DNA from: Glutamicibacter arilaitensis Re117 | GTDB lineage: Bacteria > Actinomycetota > Actinomycetes > Actinomycetales > Micrococcaceae | Assembly (NCBI RefSeq): GCF_000197735.1 | Contig: NC_014550.1 | Coordinates: forward strand, 1,178,001-1,242,000 | DNA length: 64,000 nucleotides | Reading direction: 5' to 3' | Part shown: positions 7,279 to 36,469 of the stretch, in pieces | Position numbering within the stretch: position 1 is the first letter of the stretch | Layout: each line of letters starts with the position of its first letter | Notes under the pieces: generated by a model | Databases searched by the model: none | The model's input: only the letters and a program-made list of their open reading frames with translations | Told to the model about the DNA's origin: nothing | Position numbers and translations under genes: made by a program

Positions 7279-9366
7279 TTAGCTATGGCGACTGCGACGG
7301 CGGATAGCCATGGCGATGCCGCCCACAATGATCAGGCCCAGCGCGAGCCCGCCAGCAATTAGCAGAGCACTGTTTACACCGGTGTCAGCCAGTTCATCGC
7401 GTTGCTTCTTCTGGTTGTCATCCTCATCAGGAGCTTCCTGGGTGGCGCTAGCCGTCGGAGTATTCTCCTGAGTCGGTTCTACTGAGGGCGAAGCGCTCGG
7501 TTCCGCGGTTGGTTCTGCCGAAGAAGACTCAGTTGGCTCTTCAGTTTTTTCTTCATTTGGCGAAGATTCGTCTGACGGAGCGTAGAGGCCGACCCATGTT
7601 GAGACAGTGAGCCCGGTTTCCTCTGCAGCTGGGTTCACGAAGGCCGCAGCTGCGGCTGCCGTGTCGCTGGTTTCTTCCTGCTGCTTGCCACTCAAGTAGT
7701 AGGTGCCTGCGGTAAGACTGGAAACTCTGGAATCATTGATTACCAAGGTTTCGCCGTCAACGACGTAATCGGCATCCGAGAGAACAGCTGGCGTTCCGTC
7801 TGCTGCCACGTATTCCAAATCGAAACTGAAATTATCGCTAGCCACGGTTGGGAATCCTGCAGGGATATCGAAGCGCAGGGCATCGGATCCTGCCTCAGAA
7901 AGCAAGACTCCCAAGCGATCATCGATGATCTCAGACTGCAGTTTCAGGACATTCTCACCGGATAGGAGCGCAGAAATGGCGTTTCCCTTTGGGTCCTCCA
8001 CGGTGACCAGAATCTGGTTGAAGTCCTTGACGTTGTTGCCGAAGGAATCACCATCCTTGATAACAAGCTGTCCGTCCTTCACGGTGCCCTCGATGGTCTG
8101 AGGTTCCGAACTTGGCGAAGTGCGGTAGGTGACAACTGTTTCGCCTTCTTCAACATCTGCGTCGACGTTGAATGCGTAAATTCCTTCAGCAGGATTCGAC
8201 GGATCGCTGTCGTAGGCTAGTTCTTCTTCGCCTGGAGCTACTTGGTCGCCGGACTCTGGAGCTACTGCTTCGGGAACTTCGGTTGGCTCCGTAGTTGGTT
8301 CAGCCGTTGGTTCCTCTGTCGGCTCGGCTGTTGGTTCCGCTGTTGGTTCCGCTGTTGGCTCAGCCGTTGGTTCCTCGGTCGGTTCCGCTGTTGGCTCAGC
8401 CGTTGGTTCCTCGGTCGGTTCCTCGGTCGGTTCCGCTGTTGGCTCAGCCGTTGGTTCCTCGGTCGGTTCCGCTGTTGGCTCAGCTGTGGGCTCTTCTGTT
8501 GGTTCAGGCGTCTCGCCATAAAGCCCCATATAGACCGATGCGTTTTGTTCTTCCGTGGTGCCGCGGAAAGTTACCTGATATGCATCGCCTTCGACAAGCT
8601 CAGAAAGAATGGGGTCCGAGATGGTGAGTTATCCGTCCGAGATGTCCACGTCAGTCAGCTCGACGTCAATGAATCCTCCGTTGGGGGCGTCGGCGGCATC
8701 ACTGTAGTAATTGATGGATACAGTCGCCTGGCTAAGCCACGAAAGGCCGGAAGGAATATCGAAAGACCAAACTTCTGTTCCAACTGGCAAAAACGGAACG
8801 GCATACTTTTGCCCTACTTCGTTGGTGACCAGCGAGATGCCTTGCTCAGGAACGTAGGGGACTCCACCGTGCTGCACCATATCCGGGCCGACTTCTGGCC
8901 CGGTCGAAACGCTAAAAGATACCTGTCGTAATTGATCAGGCCACGTACTGTAACCATCTGGCGAATCGAGTGGACCGTTGAGAACAACCTGGCCGTTTTC
9001 GTGCTTGGCTTCTTGGGTGCTGCCGGTGTTGGGTACCGAGGAAGAACTCAGCCACACCTTATCGCCTGATGAGACCAAACCAGTGTTGTCAGTGAGTACG
9101 ACTACGCCGTTTGCAGGATCGGATTCGTCATAGTTGAAGGTCCAGAATTCTTGGCCCTTGTCAACGAGGGTAAATTCTTCGTCGTTGTAAATCGGGTAGG
9201 CTGCCTGTTCTGCTGCGACTTGGCTCGATGTGGTTTGAGGAGCCGCGACGGCTGGGGTGAACATTGTGGTTCCGCCAACAACACCACCTAGGGCAAGGGA
9301 TCCGGCTGCTACGACAGCTAGTGGCAAACGTGCTTTGCGCACGATACTTTTTCGAGTCTGATACAC
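7279..9366 (-). pseudogene. sortase-anchored surface protein interrupted by one in-frame TAA
   Basis: One reading frame of 695 codons broken only by TAA at 8629-8631. The start is GTG 9366 with GAAGG seven bases upstream. The N-terminal half has a basic signal peptide (RKSIVRKARLPLAVVAAG..., cleavage near AVAAP), then beta-rich repeats. After the stop the frame continues as LTISDPILSEL..., through a Thr-x-Glu-Pro stalk, another beta-rich region and a C-terminal sorting signal (LADTG, hydrophobic helix, RRRSRHS). LAxTG is the motif class used by class E sortases. DG-stop-LTISD closely parallels DGQLVIKD later in the protein, so CAA to TAA is the likely lesion. As read, only a secreted 245-aa fragment without an anchor would be made. 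A ligand or partner is not evident. Confidence 0.8.
8284..8499 (-). repeat. 18 tandem Thr-x-Glu-Pro units (12-bp period)
   Basis: Eighteen consecutive four-residue units TEEP or TAEP (last one TTEP) encoded by near-identical 12-base units. This is the wall-spanning stalk of the surface protein. Such arrays change length by slippage. Confidence 0.9.
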
Positions 9367-29133: not shown

Positions 29134-29163
29134 TTGACAATTGATAATGATTCTCATTAGTGT
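29134..29163 (+). promoter_or_regulatory. promoter with overlapping Fur/Zur-type operator
   Basis: A consensus -35 (TTGACA, 29134-29139) is followed by a poor -10 candidate (TAGTGT, 29158-29163). Between them lies a perfect palindrome TAATGA-TTC-TCATTA at 29145-29159, extended on the left as TTGATAATGA. The core AATGATTCTCATT has the shape of Zur boxes in actinobacteria and also resembles Fur boxes. It does not resemble the DtxR/IdeR consensus. A bound repressor would block the promoter of the whole metallophore operon when metal is plentiful. Zur is preferred over Fur on family knowledge; not proven. Confidence 0.7.
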
Positions 29164-29238
29164 TTAGCAATGTTGGCCCATTGAGGCGCCGAGCACCGGC
29201 AGCCCGCCACCGGCCGCTAGAAACGGAAATAAGGATCA

Positions 29239-30258
29239 ATGAAGAGAATTAACCCCTGGATGCTGGCCGTGCCAGCTATCATCTTGGCAACCGCCACCGG
29301 ATGCAGCACCCCTGCAGGAACAGCCAATGAGAATGTCCCTGGCAGCGAGGCGGAAAAGACCGTCCTGGACAGCTGCGGCCGGGAAGTCGTATTCGATCAG
29401 GAGCCGCAAAGCGTCCTGGCCATCGGATCCGAGGCACCTGCCCTGCTGACCGCAGCCGGGGCAGGGGAGAAGATCACCCACTACGCCGGCAGGTACCAAG
29501 TACCTTTCGATGAGGAAACCGAGAAAGCAGTGCGCAACGCACAGCGGGTCATCGAGGATTCGCATGACGTTTCCTACGAAATGATCCTGGACTCCGGAGT
29601 GGATGTGGTTATCGGCACCGACATCGCCGCCGGGATCGACCTGAACGCACTGGCCCAGCGGCTGGAAAGGGCTGGAGTGAAGATGCTGACCGTCAGCGGA
29701 TACTGCGCTGGCTTTGAAGACCGCTCCACCTCGGGGGTGAGCGGCTTCGACCAGATCTACAAGGATGTTGAATCCTACGGGGAGCTATTCGGCACCGAAG
29801 ACCACGCCGCGCAATCGGTCAAGGACATGCGAGCCCGGGTAGATGCCGCAGCGAAGCGTGTTGCGCAGCAGGAGGAACAGCGCGGACTTCCGCTGTATGT
29901 CCCGACCGCCGGAACCCTGGGATCCTACGGCCACGAATCCCTGGTTGCCGAGCAGATGGAAGTGCTGGGCATGGAGAACGTATTCAACAACGTGCCCAAG
30001 CGCTATTTCGAACCTTCCAACGAAGAGCTGGTCGACAGCGCCGCGGACAAGGTCTTCGCCATGTACCTGCCCACCGGTTCCTCAAACTTGGAAACCGACC
30101 AGCAAGTGATCGATGAGCTGCGCCAGCGTACCGAGCTCAAGGGCCTGCCTGCCATTGAAGATGAAGACGGCATCGTGCCGCTGAACTACTACTACTCCTC
30201 GCCCGGACCGCTGGCCGTGGACGGGGTGGAACTGATCGCCGACCGGCTTACCCGGTGA
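29239..30258 (+). CDS. metallophore-binding lipoprotein (FecB/BtuF-like)
   Basis: 339 aa; ATG follows AAGGA. The signal peptide ends at ATGC with lipobox Cys22. The mature protein is a two-lobed siderophore/cobalamin-type binding protein: DSCGREVVFDQEPQSVLAIG near the start (typical of the family), a long middle helix (VKDMRARVDAAAKRVAQQ) and the closing lobe. It presumably captures the metal-loaded opine metallophore and delivers it to the FecCD/FecE pair encoded at the end of the operon. The racemase gene overlaps its stop by four bases. Confidence 0.85.
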   Translation: MKRINPWMLAVPAIILATATGCSTPAGTANENVPGSEAEKTVLDSCGREVVFDQEPQSVLAIGSEAPALLTAAGAGEKITHYAGRYQVPFDEETEKAVRNAQRVIEDSHDVSYEMILDSGVDVVIGTDIAAGIDLNALAQRLERAGVKMLTVSGYCAGFEDRSTSGVSGFDQIYKDVESYGELFGTEDHAAQSVKDMRARVDAAAKRVAQQEEQRGLPLYVPTAGTLGSYGHESLVAEQMEVLGMENVFNNVPKRYFEPSNEELVDSAADKVFAMYLPTGSSNLETDQQVIDELRQRTELKGLPAIEDEDGIVPLNYYYSSPGPLAVDGVELIADRLTR

Positions 30259-31163
30259 GCAACCGGCCTGCGGTGCTGCGCCGGAGTACTCCAGCAGCAA
30301 GCAGAACAGCGCGTGCTCCGCGGAGCACCCGATGCCAGGTCCGCAATGCCACCGCTGTCGACTTCGTGAAGCTCAGTCCGGCCTCGAACACGACCGTGCT
30401 GGTGACTAGCAGGCATCCCGAGACGCAGTATCTGGCCATCGCGGACCGGCTGCTGCGCGCCGAGCATGTGCACGCCGAGCAGGTCGGGTTCATCCTGCCT
30501 CCGCGCAAGCCGCAGGCCCACACCCGGTTGCACATGGCCGGGGACGAATTCTGCGCCAATGCCACCTTGTCCCTGGCCGCATGGCACGCCGCAACCAGGC
30601 CCGGGCCCGACCGGGCCGAGCTGCTCATTGAAACCAGCGGGGCCCGGCAGTCATTGCACTGCCGGGTTGAGCCCTCGGAGGCTGGATACCGCTGCGAACT
30701 GTCGATCCCGTGGCCGCAGAGCATCGAGCCTTATAAGGTTCCGGGCATCGAGCGCGCCGGATTGGTTCGCTACCCCGGCGCCGTGCATCTGGTGGCAGAA
30801 GGCGATGGATCCGATCCGCTGCTGCGTGAACGTGCGCAGCAGCTGGCCGTGGAACTGGGCGCACGCGAAGCGGTCTGCGTGGTGGGCATCATGCTCTATG
30901 ACCGGCACCGCCAGGAACTGGCCCCACTGGTCAGCGTCCCGGCGCTGGGCAGCATGATCTGGGAAGGCAGCTGCGGATCGGGAACCGCCGCAGTCGGCGC
31001 GTATCTGGCTGCCGTCACCGGCACCCCCATCAACGCCAGCGTTAAGCAACCTGGCGGAACCACCCAGGCCTTCGCAGACAGCAGCCGCGCCGAGGCCACC
31101 GCGCTGCGGATCTGCACTGAAGTGAACATCGTGGCCGAAGGGACGGCATATATCCATGTCTGA
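30255..31163 (+). CDS. cntK: CntK-like histidine racemase (DapF fold)
   Basis: 302 aa from a GTG overlapping the previous stop (GTGA). In staphylopine synthesis CntK converts L-His to D-His without cofactor. Both catalytic cysteines are present: Cys100 in AGDEFCANAT and Cys240 in EGSCGSGTAA. Long stretches match S. aureus CntK: FVKLSPASNTTVLV, HVHAEQVGFI, VGIMLYDRHRQ and KQPGGT. The Arg-rich first 33 residues have no counterpart, so a GTG at 30273 or another start could be true. A separate, bona fide dapF occurs at 49 kb, so this copy is not the lysine enzyme. Confidence 0.9.
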   Translation: MSNRPAVLRRSTPAASRTARAPRSTRCQVRNATAVDFVKLSPASNTTVLVTSRHPETQYLAIADRLLRAEHVHAEQVGFILPPRKPQAHTRLHMAGDEFCANATLSLAAWHAATRPGPDRAELLIETSGARQSLHCRVEPSEAGYRCELSIPWPQSIEPYKVPGIERAGLVRYPGAVHLVAEGDGSDPLLRERAQQLAVELGAREAVCVVGIMLYDRHRQELAPLVSVPALGSMIWEGSCGSGTAAVGAYLAAVTGTPINASVKQPGGTTQAFADSSRAEATALRICTEVNIVAEGTAYIHV

Positions 31164-31992
31164 AACACCACTAATCACCCTCAACGGCAGCACCTGGGAG
31201 CTAGCCGGAGCGTTGCGCGGCTACCTGGAGTGCTTCACCGCGGCAGTAGCCAGCTATGACGGGTCCACACGCCACGCCGCAGAGCTCGAAGAGCTGCTGG
31301 CCAGCTATTCGCAGCTGGTCACCGACCCGGCGAATGAAGCGGACTACGAACAGCTGGCCGCCACCGGCACCGGAACGGAACTCATCGCTCAGTTGCGCAG
31401 CGAATCCGCCCGCTGCGTCGCAAGTATCGAGAAGTACCGGGCGCTGCGCCTGCTGGAAGGAGGCGGCGGCGCCGAAGGCTACTTCGCCAATATTGAATCC
31501 TGCATCGCTGAGGAATTCGGAGCGGTCGCCCCGGATGCCAGCAGCATGGTGCTGCTGGTCGGCTCGGGATCCTTCCCGATGACCCTGCTGAACCTCGCCG
31601 CGCGCACCGGGGCCAGCGCACGGGGCATCGACATCGACCCTGAAGCACTGGAATTGGGCCGCAAGGTCGTGGCGCAGCTCGGAGAATCCCTGGATATCGA
31701 GCTGCTCGGCGAACGGATCGAGCAGCTGGACTTCCTGGCTGAGATCACCCACATCGTTTTCAGCTCGACGGTGTCCGTGAAGTACGAGCTGCTGCACCAG
31801 CTGCATGCGCTGACCCGAGACGACGTGGTGGTGGCGATGCGCTTCGGCGACGGATTGAAATCGCTGTTCAACTACCCGCTGCAGCCGGTGGACCCGGACT
31901 TGTGGCACTGCTCGGCAGTGATCCGCCAACCCGAACAGGTCTTTGACATCGCGCTGTACACCAAGACGCGCACGAGAATGGAAAGCAATTAG
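31156..31992 (+). CDS. cntL: CntL-like nicotianamine-synthase-type aminobutyryl transferase
   Basis: 278 aa, overlapping the racemase gene by eight bases. The enzyme moves an aminobutyrate group from S-adenosylmethionine to D-His (staphylopine route) or L-His. The SAM-binding core is clear: LLVGSGSFPMTLL (133-145, with GSGSFP at 136-141), GIDIDPEALELGRK (157-170) and THIVFSSTVSVKYELL. The C-terminal VVVAMRFGDGLKSLFNYP (224-241) and QVFDIALYTK are strongly shared with S. aureus CntL. The N-terminal 110 residues are helical, as in the family. Its position between racemase and dehydrogenase fits the pathway. Confidence 0.9.
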   Translation: MSETPLITLNGSTWELAGALRGYLECFTAAVASYDGSTRHAAELEELLASYSQLVTDPANEADYEQLAATGTGTELIAQLRSESARCVASIEKYRALRLLEGGGGAEGYFANIESCIAEEFGAVAPDASSMVLLVGSGSFPMTLLNLAARTGASARGIDIDPEALELGRKVVAQLGESLDIELLGERIEQLDFLAEITHIVFSSTVSVKYELLHQLHALTRDDVVVAMRFGDGLKSLFNYPLQPVDPDLWHCSAVIRQPEQVFDIALYTKTRTRMESN

Positions 31993-31995
31993 CCG

Positions 31996-33291
31996 ATGGA
32001 TGAACTAGGAAATATCCTCATCGCCGGAACCGGGCCGGTCGCGGTGCAAAGCGCCGTGCTGCTCGGGACGTTGCCCGGAGAACTGGGCATCGCAGGACGC
32101 GGCTCGCAACGCGCGAACGCCTTCTTCGACGCGCTGGACGCCACCGCCGGAACCGCGCAGAGCACGGTGCAAAACCCAGCCCACGGCGCACTGGCCGGAA
32201 CCGTGCGCTTCGCGCACCGCTATCGCGGATACCAGCAGGTCGCCGGCCGGTGGGACACCCTGGTGCTGGCCGTGACCGCCGACGCCTATCTTGCCGTGCT
32301 GCGCGAGCTGGCACCCGAGGTGCTCGTCTCGCTGCGGCGCGTCGTGCTGCTCTCGCCCACGCTGGGTTCGGCCGCCTTGGTGCGTGAATTCGCTGGCGGA
32401 CAGGCGGCGGACCTGGAAATCATCAGCTTCTCCAGCTATCTGGGGGATACCCGCCCGTTGGAGGGGACCGGCGGGGCGCTGGTGCTGAGCGCCGGGGTCA
32501 AGGCCCGCATCTACGCCGGATCCACTCATGGGCACACCCCGGCACTGCAGGCGCTGTGCGCGATCCATGCCGAGGCGGGCACGCAAGTGCAGCTGATGGA
32601 CCAGCCTCTGGAAGCCGAAGCCCGGAACATGTCCTTGTATGTTCACCCGGCCCTGTTCTTCAACGAGGTCGCGTTGCGTGCAGTCTTCGCGCCGGCGCCG
32701 CCGATCCAATACGTCTACAAGCTCTATCCCGAAGGTCCGGTCACCCCGGCGCTGATCCACGCGCTGGCACAGACCTGGCGGGAACTGACCGCGATCACCA
32801 CCGCGCTGGGAGGGAAGGGCGTGAACCTGTTGGCCTTCATGCTCCAGGACGGCTACCCGCTGCACCCCCAGAGCATCAGCCCGGCGCAGGCCGCCAGCTT
32901 CGAACAGCTGCCGCCCATCGAGCAGGAGTACCTGCTCTACGTGCGCTATGCATCGCTGCTGATCGACCCGTTCTCGCAGCCCGATGACCAAGGACGCTAC
33001 TTCGACTTCTCGGCCATCGCCTTCCGCCCGGTCTTCATAAACGAGCTGGGCCAGTGGGATGTGCCGCGGATGCCCAAGGAAGACTACTACCGCACCAAGA
33101 TCATTGCCGGGCTCGCCCGGAAGCTGGCCGTGCCCTGCCCGATGATCGACTCGCTGCTGGCCGCCTACGAAACGGCTCTGGAGCAGGCCGCACACGAGCT
33201 GGCAGGCCAACGCCGCGCGCCGGCTTTTGCCGTGCAGGACTTCGCTGCGGACTTGGACATGATCAGCGCCGGCATCGGGAGCGCGGTATGA
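31996..33291 (+). CDS. cntM: CntM-like opine metallophore dehydrogenase
   Basis: 431 aa, four bases after cntL. It joins the aminobutyryl-His intermediate to an alpha-ketoacid by reductive amination with NAD(P)H. The dinucleotide fold has GTGPVA (11-16), with Arg35 in AGRGSQ at the position of the NADPH-binding Arg33 of S. aureus CntM. Matches run through the protein: SFSSYLGDTR (144-153), SLYVHP with His217, YKLYPEGP (241-248), LIDPFSQPD (322-330) and RMPKEDYYRT (358-367). Asp151 aligns with S. aureus Asp150, reported to favour pyruvate over 2-oxoglutarate. A staphylopine-like product is therefore predicted. Confidence 0.92.
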   Translation: MDELGNILIAGTGPVAVQSAVLLGTLPGELGIAGRGSQRANAFFDALDATAGTAQSTVQNPAHGALAGTVRFAHRYRGYQQVAGRWDTLVLAVTADAYLAVLRELAPEVLVSLRRVVLLSPTLGSAALVREFAGGQAADLEIISFSSYLGDTRPLEGTGGALVLSAGVKARIYAGSTHGHTPALQALCAIHAEAGTQVQLMDQPLEAEARNMSLYVHPALFFNEVALRAVFAPAPPIQYVYKLYPEGPVTPALIHALAQTWRELTAITTALGGKGVNLLAFMLQDGYPLHPQSISPAQAASFEQLPPIEQEYLLYVRYASLLIDPFSQPDDQGRYFDFSAIAFRPVFINELGQWDVPRMPKEDYYRTKIIAGLARKLAVPCPMIDSLLAAYETALEQAAHELAGQRRAPAFAVQDFAADLDMISAGIGSAV

Positions 33292-34550
33292 GCCAGCCAG
33301 AAGCAGAAACCATCCAAGCACTGCCCAGCGAGCGGCGGATCATCGTAGAGATCTGGCCGGCACTGCTGGCCTCCGCGCTGGGTCTGCTGCCCTTCACAGT
33401 GCTGAGCACCTTCTTGGTGCCCATCGCCGACTGGGCCGGAGCAGGCTACGCCGAAACCGGGACCCTGCGCGGGCTGGCCGGAGTCGGTGCGGTGCTCGCC
33501 GGCATCGGGCTGGCCCCGCTGATCGGACGCATTGCCCCGGGCACGGTGGCCGCCGCAGCGCTGGGGCTGATGGGCGCCGCGGCCATCGTGGGAACCTTTT
33601 CGGGTCTCGCCGCGCTGGCCATCTTCTGCCTGGCCACCGGCGTATCCAATGCGCTGCTCTACCCGGCGCTATCAACCGCGGCCGCGGATCGATTCGGCAG
33701 CACCCCGGCTGCCGGCCGGGCCGCCACCTTGGTGATGACCGCCCAGACCTTGGCCTCCACGCTCGGTGCGCCGCTGCTGATCCTGCCGGCCATGTTCTGG
33801 GGCTGGCAGGGCAACCTGATCGCCATCGGCATCATCAGCATCGCGTTGATCCCGGCGGTCCTGCGCTACGGCCGCCGCGGCGCCGTGCAGGCCGATCCAG
33901 CCCAAATCGCGCCGGCTAAGCCACCGGCCCGAGTGGGATACCTGGCAGCCTTCAAGTTGCTGTCGCAGGTGCCCGGCGCCCGGGCGCTGCTCTTGGTCTC
34001 CTTCGGGAGGGCCGGAGCATTCATGGGGCATCTGGCCTTCCTGGCCCCGCTGTACGCGCACAAGTTCGCACTGGATGCCAGCTGGTTCGCCTGGGTCTGG
34101 TCGGTCAGCGGCGGAGCTTTCTTCCTCGGACACCTGCTGGCCGGACGGATGCTGAACGCCGAAGATTCCCAGCGCCGCACCCGCACGGTGATGATCATCT
34201 GCTTAGCCACCGGCCTGGTGGCGCTCTTCGGCGTCTACCTGGCACCGGTACTGCCGCTGGCCGTCGCCAGTACTGCGATGCTCTCAGCCAGCCATGCGGT
34301 CGTCTCGGCCGCGGTAACGAGCCTGCTGGTGGCCCGCTGCACGCAGGTGCGCGGCACCGCGCTGAGCTTGAACGCCGCCGGGATGTCGCTGGGCTTGTTC
34401 TTAGGCACTGCGGCTTCCGGAGCGGCGATGGCCGCGGCCGGATACTTGGCCGCCGCTGCGGTACTTGGCGTCTTGACCGGGATCGCGTTGCTCGCCGCAC
34501 TGAGCCTGCGCGCCGCAACCACCGATGAAATATTGGAAGGCCAATCATGA
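33288..34550 (+). CDS. MFS exporter for the metallophore (CntE-like)
   Basis: 420 aa from ATG 33288, overlapping cntM by four bases. Twelve hydrophobic segments are visible, with a charged loop near residues 195-215 and the MFS-like GRAGAFMGHLAFLAPLYAHKF. In staphylococci the MFS protein CntE exports staphylopine, and the position after cntM supports the same role. The substrate is inferred from context only. The gene overlaps the permease gene by four bases. Confidence 0.82.
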   Translation: MSQPEAETIQALPSERRIIVEIWPALLASALGLLPFTVLSTFLVPIADWAGAGYAETGTLRGLAGVGAVLAGIGLAPLIGRIAPGTVAAAALGLMGAAAIVGTFSGLAALAIFCLATGVSNALLYPALSTAAADRFGSTPAAGRAATLVMTAQTLASTLGAPLLILPAMFWGWQGNLIAIGIISIALIPAVLRYGRRGAVQADPAQIAPAKPPARVGYLAAFKLLSQVPGARALLLVSFGRAGAFMGHLAFLAPLYAHKFALDASWFAWVWSVSGGAFFLGHLLAGRMLNAEDSQRRTRTVMIICLATGLVALFGVYLAPVLPLAVASTAMLSASHAVVSAAVTSLLVARCTQVRGTALSLNAAGMSLGLFLGTAASGAAMAAAGYLAAAAVLGVLTGIALLAALSLRAATTDEILEGQS

Positions 34551-35653
34551 GGCAACCAGGACCCGTACTCGAGGCGGCACCCGCCGCATTGGTGTTCTCC
34601 GCCGATGATTTGGAGCACCGCCAACGCTCCCGGCAGACCTGGTGGTGGATCGCCGGGCTGCTGGCCGCTGTGCTGGTGTCCTTGCCGATGGCCATCGGGC
34701 TAGGGCCGGTTTCCATCGAGCCGGGCGCCGTGGTGGGCATCCTCAAATCGCAGTGGTGGGATGATCCTGCTCTGGCCTCCTGGAGCGCTTCGGATGAATC
34801 GATCGTCCTGTTGCTGCGCGTGCCCCGGGTGCTGCTGGGGGCCGCCGTCGGTGCCGGGCTGGCGCTGGCCGGCGTGGCCTTGCAGGCGCTGACCCGCAAC
34901 ATCCTGGCCGAACCGTACCTGCTGGGCGTGACCTCCGGAGCCTCGACCCTTTCGGCGGCGTCGATTCTTTTCGGTGCCACCGCCGGGATCGGCTCGGCCT
35001 CGTTGGCCACCAGCGCCTTCGCCGGGGCCCTGATCGCCGGAATCGGCGTCTACCTGCTGGCTCGCGTCGGCAATGAAATGACCTCCACTCGACTCGTGCT
35101 GGCCGGCGTATCCGTGGGGTACGTGCTGCACGCACTGACCTCGCTGCTGATCTTCGCCTCGGATGACCCGAATGCCGGTCGCTCGGTGCTCTTCTGGACC
35201 CTGGGCTCGCTAGCGCAGGCCACCGGGCAGTCGGTGCTGATCACCTGGGTGGTGGTGCTCGGAACCCTCGCGCTGCTGGTGTACTGGTCGCGGCCGCTGG
35301 ACGCGCTGGCCATCGGCGATGGCACCGCACAAACGCTGGGCATTTCCCCGGCCAAGCTGCGCGCCGCCGTCATGATCGTCACCGCACTGTGCGTCGGTGC
35401 CTTGGTAGCTTCCTCCGGCGGCATCGGATTCGTCGGATTGGTGATCCCGCATGTGGCCCGGCTGTGCGTGGGCTCTACCCATCGAAAGCTGCTCCCAGTG
35501 GCGGCGCTGCTCGGAGCGCTCTTCCTGGTCTGGGCAGATGTGCTGGCCCGCACCGCGCTGGCGCCGCAGGAACTGCCGTTGGGCATCGTCACCGCATTGC
35601 TCGGCGCCCCGCTGCTGTTCGTCCTCGTGCGCCGGCTGAACTCCGCCCAATGA
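34547..35653 (+). CDS. FecCD-family ABC permease for metallophore uptake
   Basis: 368 aa, ATGA overlap with the exporter gene. It is a BtuC/FecCD-type permease with about ten helices: RVPRVLLGAAVGAGLALAGVALQ (read in two parts), NILAEPYLLGVTSGAS, GGIGFVGLVIPHVAR and the end ELPLGIVTALLGAP are family hallmarks. Only one FecCD gene is present, so it probably forms a homodimer as BtuC does. An N-terminal cytosolic extension of about 30 residues precedes helix one. Staphylococcal staphylopine import uses a different (Opp/Nik type) permease. Confidence 0.92.
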   Translation: MRQPGPVLEAAPAALVFSADDLEHRQRSRQTWWWIAGLLAAVLVSLPMAIGLGPVSIEPGAVVGILKSQWWDDPALASWSASDESIVLLLRVPRVLLGAAVGAGLALAGVALQALTRNILAEPYLLGVTSGASTLSAASILFGATAGIGSASLATSAFAGALIAGIGVYLLARVGNEMTSTRLVLAGVSVGYVLHALTSLLIFASDDPNAGRSVLFWTLGSLAQATGQSVLITWVVVLGTLALLVYWSRPLDALAIGDGTAQTLGISPAKLRAAVMIVTALCVGALVASSGGIGFVGLVIPHVARLCVGSTHRKLLPVAALLGALFLVWADVLARTALAPQELPLGIVTALLGAPLLFVLVRRLNSAQ

Positions 35654-35683
35654 CCAACGTTTTGTGAAAGGCAGGGAAAAACC

Positions 35684-36469
35684 ATGATTACCGCAACCGA
35701 TATTTCCGTGGGGTACGGAGGCAAGCTGGTCATTGAGTCCGTGGGCCTGTCCGCTGGCCCCGGCGAGGTCGTGGGGCTGATCGGGCCCAACGGCAGCGGC
35801 AAATCCTCATTCTTGCGCACGCTGTACTCGGCACTGCGCCCGCAAACCGGACAGGTCAGCCTGGACGGACAGCCGGTCAGCGCGCTGCGCGGCAACGAAC
35901 TGGCGCGGCGGATCGCCGTGGTGGCGCAGGAAACCCCGACCGATCTTCCGGTCAGCGTGGCCGAGATGGTCTTGCTGGGCCGTACCCCGCACCGCACGGC
36001 GCTGGCATCCTTCACCCGCGAGGACCACCAGGCCGTCGCGGCGGCACTGAGCAGGGTCGGCGCGCGCTCGTTGGCAGATCGACGCTATTCGACCCTCTCC
36101 GGTGGCGAGAAGCAACGCGTCTTGGTGGCCCGCAGCCTGGCCCAGCAAGCCGATCACCTGCTGCTCGATGAGCCCACCAACCACCTGGATATCCGCTATC
36201 AGCACGAACTGCTGCGCATGCTCCGGAGCTTGGGAACAACCACCGTCATCGTGCTGCACGACTTGAACTTGGCTGCCCGCTACTGCACCAAACTGGTGAT
36301 GCTCGATGGCGGTGGCGTCGTCGCGGCCGGCAGTGCCGAGCAGGTACTCGATCCGGATCTGTTGCTGCAGGTCTACGGAATTCACGCCGAAGCAGTCCAG
36401 GTCAATGGCACACTGCAGCTGGTCTTCAGCATGGTCGATGAGCCCTTGGCGCAACATACCGCTGGTTGA
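35684..36469 (+). CDS. FecE-type ABC ATPase for metallophore uptake
   Basis: 261 aa. Walker A GPNGSGKSS (34-42), Q-loop in VVAQETP, signature LSGGEKQRV (138-146), Walker B LLLDEPTNHLD (159-169) and the switch His in VLHDLNLAARYC are all present. The type is that of siderophore/heme/cobalamin importers. It is last of the seven co-directional genes and separated by 30 bases from the permease, with GAAAGGCAGGG before the ATG. It energises the FecCD permease. Confidence 0.93.
   Translation: MITATDISVGYGGKLVIESVGLSAGPGEVVGLIGPNGSGKSSFLRTLYSALRPQTGQVSLDGQPVSALRGNELARRIAVVAQETPTDLPVSVAEMVLLGRTPHRTALASFTREDHQAVAAALSRVGARSLADRRYSTLSGGEKQRVLVARSLAQQADHLLLDEPTNHLDIRYQHELLRMLRSLGTTTVIVLHDLNLAARYCTKLVMLDGGGVVAAGSAEQVLDPDLLLQVYGIHAEAVQVNGTLQLVFSMVDEPLAQHTAG

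What the first reader, a model, noticed from the sequence alone, without database searches (positions are those of the whole stretch)
29134..36469. Complete staphylopine-type metallophore system in an actinobacterium
Seven co-directional genes, mostly with 4-8 base overlaps, encode receptor lipoprotein, CntK, CntL, CntM, MFS exporter, FecCD permease and FecE ATPase. CntK keeps both catalytic cysteines (C100, C240). CntL keeps GSGSFP, GIDIDP and MRFGDGLKSLFNYP. CntM matches the staphylococcal enzyme along its length. Known examples are from Staphylococcus, Pseudomonas, Yersinia, Paenibacillus and similar bacteria. A self-contained version with its own exporter and importer in a Micrococcaceae-like genome is, as far as I know, little or not characterised. 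It should make, secrete and re-import a His/aminobutyrate/ketoacid metallophore.
Basis: partly seen in the sequence, partly recalled or inferred. Interest (0 to 1): 0.92.

Follow-up and report, generated by a model that had tools for sequence, protein, structure and literature searches.

The report
Zinc-scavenger operon in a soil actinobacterium
A soil-type bacterium carries a complete gene set that looks built to make, release and take back a small zinc-catching molecule like that of Staphylococcus; the kind was already mapped in actinobacteria, but its zinc-type control site, a probable second importer elsewhere, and a close relative that has lost the synthesis genes alone are new leads.

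Summary
Window 29239-36469 is a tight seven-gene operon: FecB-type lipoprotein, CntK, CntL, CntM, MFS, FecCD, FecE. CntK/L/M match the staphylopine enzymes by profile and solved-structure sequence, with key residues kept (CntM Asp151 = S. aureus Asp150, predicting pyruvate). 'Little characterised' is only partly right: opine zincophore clusters with racemase, MFS and FecCD were mapped in actinobacteria in 2020 (PMC7438024). I found no experiment on one.

New here: (1) the promoter holds a 7-1-7 palindrome like the published Streptomyces Zur box (13 of 15 bases); its exact pattern occurs twice in the genome. (2) The second copy abuts an unlinked NikA/Opp-type importer operon, a likely second importer. 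(3) Among 18 genomes of the genus (Glutamicibacter) 6 have CntM; the Azt zinc importer, with the same box, occurs in 7 of the 9 genomes lacking both CntM and this Opp operon and in none of the 9 others. In one close pair azt and opp fill the same slot. This fails outside the genus. (4) One relative (G007) lacks cntKLM at the locus but keeps SBP, exporter and importer intact: a probable non-producing user.

Product, export, uptake and regulation are inferred, not shown.

The parts
29134..29163 (+). Promoter region: TTGACA (29134-29139) followed by the Zur-type 7-1-7 palindrome TGATAATGATTCTCA (29142-29156; 21-bp form 29139-29159)
   Evidence: Exact pattern TGANAATSATTNTCA only twice in the 3.9-Mb genome, control pattern 0; at most 1 mismatch upstream of the SBP gene in 12 of 13 seven-gene relatives. 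The sigma-70 scan found no promoter here.
29239..30258 (+). FecB/BtuF-type substrate-binding lipoprotein, predicted metallophore receptor
   Evidence: Pfam Peripla_BP_2 5.1e-13; PDB 5cr9 3.1e-27; lipobox-like ATGC near the N-terminus
30255..31163 (+). CntK, histidine racemase; GTG start overlapping the SBP stop; about 30-residue N-terminal extension
   Evidence: NCBIfam NF033599 1.8e-52; PDB 6l4l 2.2e-30 from residue 31; C100 and C240
31156..31992 (+). CntL, nicotianamine-synthase-like aminobutyrate transferase
   Evidence: NF033601 6.5e-82; PDB 7c9m 2.8e-65 over residues 15-272
31996..33291 (+). CntM, opine dehydrogenase; Asp151 aligns with S. aureus Asp150 (pyruvate type)
   Evidence: PF10100 4.3e-192; PDB 6h31 4.5e-103; YLGDTR at 148-153
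33288..34550 (+). MFS transporter, predicted exporter of the apo-metallophore
   Evidence: MFS_1 1.9e-17; 4-base overlaps with cntM and fecCD; directly after cntM in the 16 actinobacterial relatives
34547..35653 (+). FecCD permease of the metallophore importer
   Evidence: PF01032 9.8e-85
35684..36469 (+). FecE-type ATPase of the importer
   Evidence: PF00005 2.7e-31; FecE, heme and corrinoid importer ATPase models

Best explanation
A zinc-starvation operon of a Glutamicibacter species. When zinc is scarce, Zur leaves the box at 29142-29156 and the seven genes are transcribed. CntK turns L-His into D-His, CntL adds an aminobutyrate unit from S-adenosylmethionine, CntM reductively joins pyruvate, giving staphylopine or a close analogue. 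The MFS protein exports it; the metal complex is caught by the lipoprotein and imported by FecCD-FecE. A second, unlinked Opp/NikA-type importer with the same box (C3:3552435) is probably part of the same response. Shown by sequence: gene families, residues, conserved order, the box and its distribution. Inferred: Zur binding, product, metal, direction of the MFS, substrates of both importers.
For: Family and structure-sequence matches; residues; same order in 13 of 16 other actinobacterial loci. The box matches 13 of 15 bases of the S. coelicolor Zur consensus TGAAAATGATTTTCA (PMC2823685, passage; comparison). PMC6103462 (passages) lists Zur-controlled metallophore clusters in actinomycetes. 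The genome has two Fur-family genes: one near an ABC-3 (Znu-type) permease gene, with best PDB matches to Streptomyces Zur (3mwm 3.3e-44) and M. tuberculosis FurB/Zur (2o03 2.3e-39), the other next to a KatG-like peroxidase gene. In 18 genus genomes the exact box occurs 26 times, control 1: before azt zinc importers (6), opp (7), cnt or its remnant (4), COG0523-like GTPase genes (4, one inferred from spacing), a cation-efflux gene (1).
Against: No expression, binding or chemical data. All three Cnt proteins score under NCBI's equivalog cut-offs, so the product could differ from staphylopine. The MFS matches nothing in the Bacillota cnt loci. The SBP, FecCD and FecE families are mostly named for iron, corrinoid, heme or F420-0 import. 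The Znu-type genes of G000 near the Zur-like gene show no box at one mismatch or less. 4 of 26 boxes have no clear zinc-uptake context: 3 lie inside unrelated ORFs and 1 before an ADH-family gene, overlapping the end of another ORF.
Confidence: 0.86

Rival explanations
1. Same operon, but the product is a staphylopine analogue (different keto acid, histidine form or amino acid) rather than staphylopine itself.
For: CntL is 56-77% and CntM 58-82% identical to the window's even within the genus; G005 has Ser and Actinokineospora Gly at the keto-acid position; scores below equivalog cut-offs.
Against: The window's own CntM keeps Asp at that position, which PMC7438024 links to pyruvate; a racemase gene is present.
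Confidence: 0.3
2. The unlinked Opp/NikA-type operon at C3:3552435 is a nickel or peptide importer that merely carries a Zur box, not a second metallophore importer.
For: Its SBP is closest to NikA (3t66 1e-35; NCBIfam Opp5A_nikA 1.5e-57) and only weakly like CntA (1.7e-13); 3 of 12 CntM-negative genomes have it too; on the species tree its link with cnt is weak (same direction in 1-3 of 5 independent pairs, none opposite, p 0.25-1).
Against: 5 of 6 CntM-positive genomes have it (Fisher p 0.043, relatedness ignored); in the seven boxed cases printed the box ends two bases before an ATG; in G012 it sits in the slot that holds azt in its close relative G001; one solved NikA-type match is titled nickel/metallophore binding protein (8spm).
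Confidence: 0.4
3. The regulator of the box is an iron Fur rather than Zur, so the system is for iron.
For: TGATAATNATTATCA is also the classical Fur-type 7-1-7 pattern (recalled).
Against: The same box in sister species precedes azt zinc importer and COG0523-like genes; of the two Fur-family genes, one is next to a peroxidase gene and the other is Zur-like.
Confidence: 0.06

Closest known systems
Staphylopine system cntKLM-ABCDF-E of Staphylococcus aureus
   Same: CntK, CntL and CntM in the same order and same enzyme families; Asp at CntM position 150
   Different: FecB/FecCD/FecE importer instead of CntABCDF; SBP gene first; MFS directly after cntM and not detectably similar to proteins of Bacillota cnt loci (S. 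aureus itself was not in that set); Opp-type importer unlinked
Actinobacterial opine zincophore clusters of PMC7438024 (CntM cluster 1)
   Same: Racemase, CntL, CntM, MFS and FecCD; this is the kind to which the window belongs
   Different: That paper's text ties FecCD-only clusters to an added methyltransferase, or finds Opp and FecCD side by side; here no methyltransferase gene is added and Opp is unlinked. Pseudonocardiales loci L009 and L010 do carry a PF13649 gene. The paper's species table was not readable here.
Bacillopaline system of Paenibacillus mucilaginosus
   Same: Racemase present; CntM in the same network cluster as actinobacteria (PMC7438024)
   Different: Ala, not Asp, at the keto-acid position; Opp-type importer (PMC7438024)
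Pseudopaline and yersinopine systems
   Same: CntL-CntM core; the yersinopine cluster has a FecCD-type importer (PMC7438024)
   Different: No racemase; EamA exporter (PMC7438024); CntM more distant in sequence
AztABCD zinc importer
   Same: Same type of Zur box in sister species
   Different: Imports zinc itself; no metallophore synthesis

Membership tests
Opine-type zincophore cluster | CntM-type opine dehydrogenase | tested here: met
   PF10100 4.3e-192; PDB 6h31 4.5e-103
Opine-type zincophore cluster | CntL directly upstream of CntM | tested here: met
   31156-31992, 3 bases before cntM
Opine-type zincophore cluster | Importer and exporter genes within six ORFs of cntM | tested here: met
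   SBP, FecCD, FecE and an MFS gene; export direction not tested
Opine-type zincophore cluster | Production of the opine compound | not testable with these tools
   needs LC-MS
Staphylopine (D-His, pyruvate) type | Histidine racemase CntK with both catalytic cysteines | tested here: met
   C100 and C240
Staphylopine (D-His, pyruvate) type | Asp at CntM position 150 | tested here: met
   D151 aligned to D150, counted along the alignment; YLGDTR
Staphylopine (D-His, pyruvate) type | Opp-type importer CntABCDF in the cluster | tested here: not met
   FecCD type in the cluster; Opp-type operon unlinked and only weakly like CntA
NCBI equivalogs CntK/CntL/staphylopine DH | Score over curated cut-off | tested here: not met
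   178.5/300, 274.7/350, 452.6/675 bits
FecCD-only actinomycete clusters with methyltransferase | Added PF13649 methyltransferase gene in the cluster | tested here: not met
   Of the seven genes only CntL itself matches PF13649, below cut-off; the four genes upstream are ABC/OpuAC genes and the two downstream a flavin-type reductase and an unknown protein; present in L009 and L010
Zur regulon | Actinobacterial Zur-type box in the promoter | tested here: met
Zur regulon | Zinc-dependent Zur binding or repression | not testable with these tools
   needs EMSA or RNA-seq

The most novel reading that the evidence does not exclude
In Glutamicibacter, Zur-controlled high-affinity zinc import has repeatedly switched between direct import (Azt) and zincophore use (Cnt plus Opp), once visibly by swapping operons in one chromosomal slot, and a producer has turned into a transporter-only user by a clean loss of cntKLM between short repeats: a natural producer-to-cheater series for zinc.
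Probability: 0.45. Interest if true: 0.7.

Novelty: new variant of a known kind. Interest (0 to 1): 0.5.

Why it matters
The four opine zincophores characterised by 2020 are from three pathogens' genera and Paenibacillus (PMC7438024). A genus in which close species look like producers, importer-only users, or Azt users would make questions on zincophore sharing, cheating and cost testable by coculture. It also offers a Gram-positive FecCD-type route for opine metallophores, of which no experimental study showed up in my searches of the open-access library, judged from listings and passages.

Tried and rejected
Idea that the operon is unique to this genome: rejected (same order in 13 of 16 other actinobacterial loci annotated). 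Idea that it arrived recently from Bacillota: not supported; CntKLM of 17 actinobacteria and of 10 Bacillota (10 of the 70 loci held were used) fall on two sides of a 100/100 branch. Idea that Azt and Cnt exclude each other everywhere: rejected; of 395 family genomes, 1 of 11 CntM-positive ones (G106, Kocuria polaris) has AztB at E 1e-50 against 66 of 384 others (Fisher p 0.70); on the genus tree the opposition of Azt to Cnt-or-Opp rests on 3-4 of 5 independent pairs, none against, sign-test p 0.125-0.25. Idea that the Opp SBP is a CntA orthologue: rejected (weak match). Idea that the five one-mismatch box sites of the genome are Zur targets: no clear zinc context seen in the first residues of the neighbouring ORFs (no family search). 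A looser pattern gave two more sites, no better than its control of two. A sigma-70 scan found no promoter. Structure prediction was not used.
Full report
WHAT IS THERE. The seven genes exist as described. CntK, CntL and CntM match their staphylopine models and the solved S. aureus enzymes by sequence; the SBP, MFS, FecCD and FecE genes match general transporter families. CntK keeps C100 and C240, CntL its three motifs, CntM an Asp at the position that PMC7438024 ties to pyruvate. G+C of the operon is 0.659 against 0.586 for the window. Upstream lies a glycine-betaine-type (OpuAC) ABC operon, downstream a pyridine-nucleotide disulphide reductase gene.

HOST. The window lies in a 3.86-Mb contig of a three-contig genome.

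RELATIVES. The scan of genome contigs gave 126 relatives of CntM, 80 kept. Of 16 actinobacterial loci annotated, 13 have the window's order (Glutamicibacter, Paeniglutamicibacter and its genus-mates, Kocuria, Austwickia, Nocardioides, Pseudonocardia) and 3 (Actinokineospora, Actinophytocola, Actinosynnema) have K-L-M-MFS-SBP-FecCD-FecE; in the two of these three that I tested a PF13649 methyltransferase gene follows. Of the 70 Bacillota loci, 68 have an Opp-type SBP match somewhere in the locus; none has an ORF of 100 aa or more matching the window's MFS at E 0.01. In a CntKLM tree the 17 actinobacteria are separate from 10 Bacillota (100/100), and the window groups with G011, then G005; G010 sits with the Paeniglutamicibacter rows (99/99), unlike in the species tree, which suggests transfer or uneven loss. 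In G004 and G017 the cluster lies at other places in the genome.

PRIOR KNOWLEDGE. I read the results (section 5) and passages of PMC7438024. It reports actinobacterial clusters, 14 of 24 with FecCD only and 10 with FecCD and Opp, some with racemase and MFS, and says that the FecCD-only species also encode a methyltransferase. The window fits the kind but neither subtype as worded. Zur control of metallophore clusters is known in actinomycetes (coelibactin, ethylenediamine-disuccinate; PMC6103462, passages). Other papers were seen as search listings or passages. No experiment on an actinobacterial opine zincophore appeared in these; the library is open-access only.

CONTROL. The box TGATAATGATTCTCA lies 97 bases before the SBP gene. 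In the whole genome the exact pattern TGANAATSATTNTCA occurs twice, its reversed control never. Upstream of the SBP gene, 12 of 13 seven-gene relatives have it with at most one mismatch; the thirteenth (Austwickia) has two, overlapping the gene start; none of 3 Pseudonocardiales loci has it before cntK at up to 3 mismatches. In the 17 sources scanned (390,638 positions) there are 13 sites with at most one mismatch, as many as the upstream ones (window and 12 relatives). PMC2823685 (passages) gives the S. coelicolor Zur consensus TGAAAATGATTTTCA, of which the window's box keeps 13 of 15 bases, and names znu and COG0523 genes as the actinobacterial Zur core. In 18 genus genomes I count 26 exact boxes, control 1: 4 at cnt or its remnant, 7 at opp, 6 at azt, 4 at COG0523/CobW-like genes (G015's second box is inferred from spacing, not inspected), 1 at a cation-efflux gene, 1 before an alcohol-dehydrogenase-family gene (overlapping the end of another ORF), 3 inside ORFs (2 of them adenosine deaminase, one shown by Pfam). 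G002, G008 and G009 have no exact box; G008's azt has one with one mismatch. AztB passes its equivalog cut-off (329 over 280 bits; AztA just misses, 214 against 220).

SECOND IMPORTER. The other exact box in G000 ends two bases before an ATG of an operon of two ATPases, an SBP_bac_5 lipoprotein and a two-domain permease. Orthologues (64% identity or more; next best 38%) are in 8 of 18 genus genomes: 5 of 6 CntM-positive (not G017) and 3 of 12 others (G007, G012, G014). The exact box precedes it in 7 of 8; G004 lacks it.

SWITCHING. CntL and CntM are in the same 6 of 18 genomes. AztB orthologues (64% or more; next best 35%) are in 7 (G001, G003, G006, G008, G013, G015, G016), none of which has CntM or the Opp orthologue; G002 and G009 have none of the three. 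Fisher p is 0.038 against CntM and 0.002 against CntM-or-Opp, both ignoring relatedness. A tree of RNase J, FtsK and PgsA (some rows incomplete) needs 6 changes for cnt, 5 for azt and 6 for opp; independent pairs oppose azt to cnt-or-opp in 3-4 of 5 and never the other way, too few for significance. Outside the genus the rule fails: Kocuria has both, and family counts show no association. All 18 genomes also have a weak (22-26% identity) AztB match; the one of G000 is an ABC-3 permease near the Zur-like gene. In G001 and G012 (98.8% identical over the three proteins), the azt and the opp operon lie in the same slot between a LUD-domain gene and an MFS gene, each with the box; in G005 (cnt and opp) the slot has no azt.

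LOSS OF SYNTHESIS GENES. G007, sister of G011 and then of the window's genome (starred branches), has RNase J, the OpuAC-type operon, the box, SBP, MFS, FecCD, FecE in the same place, but no match to CntM (E 1e-20) or CntL (E 1e-5) in its genome (CntK was not searched genome-wide; 40 contigs). Its SBP gene runs straight into the MFS gene. In G011 the starts of cntK and of the MFS gene share 13 bases, ATGAGCCAGCCAG, and G007's junction keeps the first 11, so loss between these repeats is the likely path; the window's cntK start no longer has the repeat. The four kept genes have no internal stops and dN well below dS against G011 (0.033-0.070 against 0.343-0.433). Since this ratio covers time before the loss too, present function is inferred. 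Ten other genomes show the site without the cluster: G003, G006, G013-G016 with opuC next to the reductase gene, G001, G008, G009, G012 with opuC near ftsK.

VERDICT. Real, well identified, of a kind mapped in 2020; the regulatory, second-importer and evolutionary findings raise it above an ordinary annotation. Chemistry remains to be shown.

Noticed in passing
L210:5823-10020 (G007): cntKLM missing from an otherwise intact operon; junction at a short repeat found at both gene starts in sister G011
   Followed up: yes
L161:1915-11911 and L222:3169-13795: azt and opp operons occupy the same slot in two close species (G001, G012)
   Followed up: yes
L007:10001-11313: cntM of Paeniglutamicibacter terrestris is split over two frames; a real break or a sequencing error
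   Followed up: no
L102 CntM (G005) and L009 CntM (Actinokineospora): Ser and Gly at the keto-acid position, suggesting other keto acids
   Followed up: no
L171:4799-6022 (G004): An MFS gene (MFS_1 4.7e-28) lies inside the opp operon, which has no exact box
   Followed up: partly
window 8280-8505: Array of about 4.7 copies of a 48-bp unit (12-bp subunit), score 263
   Followed up: no
L227:2021-5187 (G000 C3, about 3418020-3421190): Another ZnuA/ABC-3 metal importer beside a DtxR-like repressor gene, possibly manganese
   Followed up: partly
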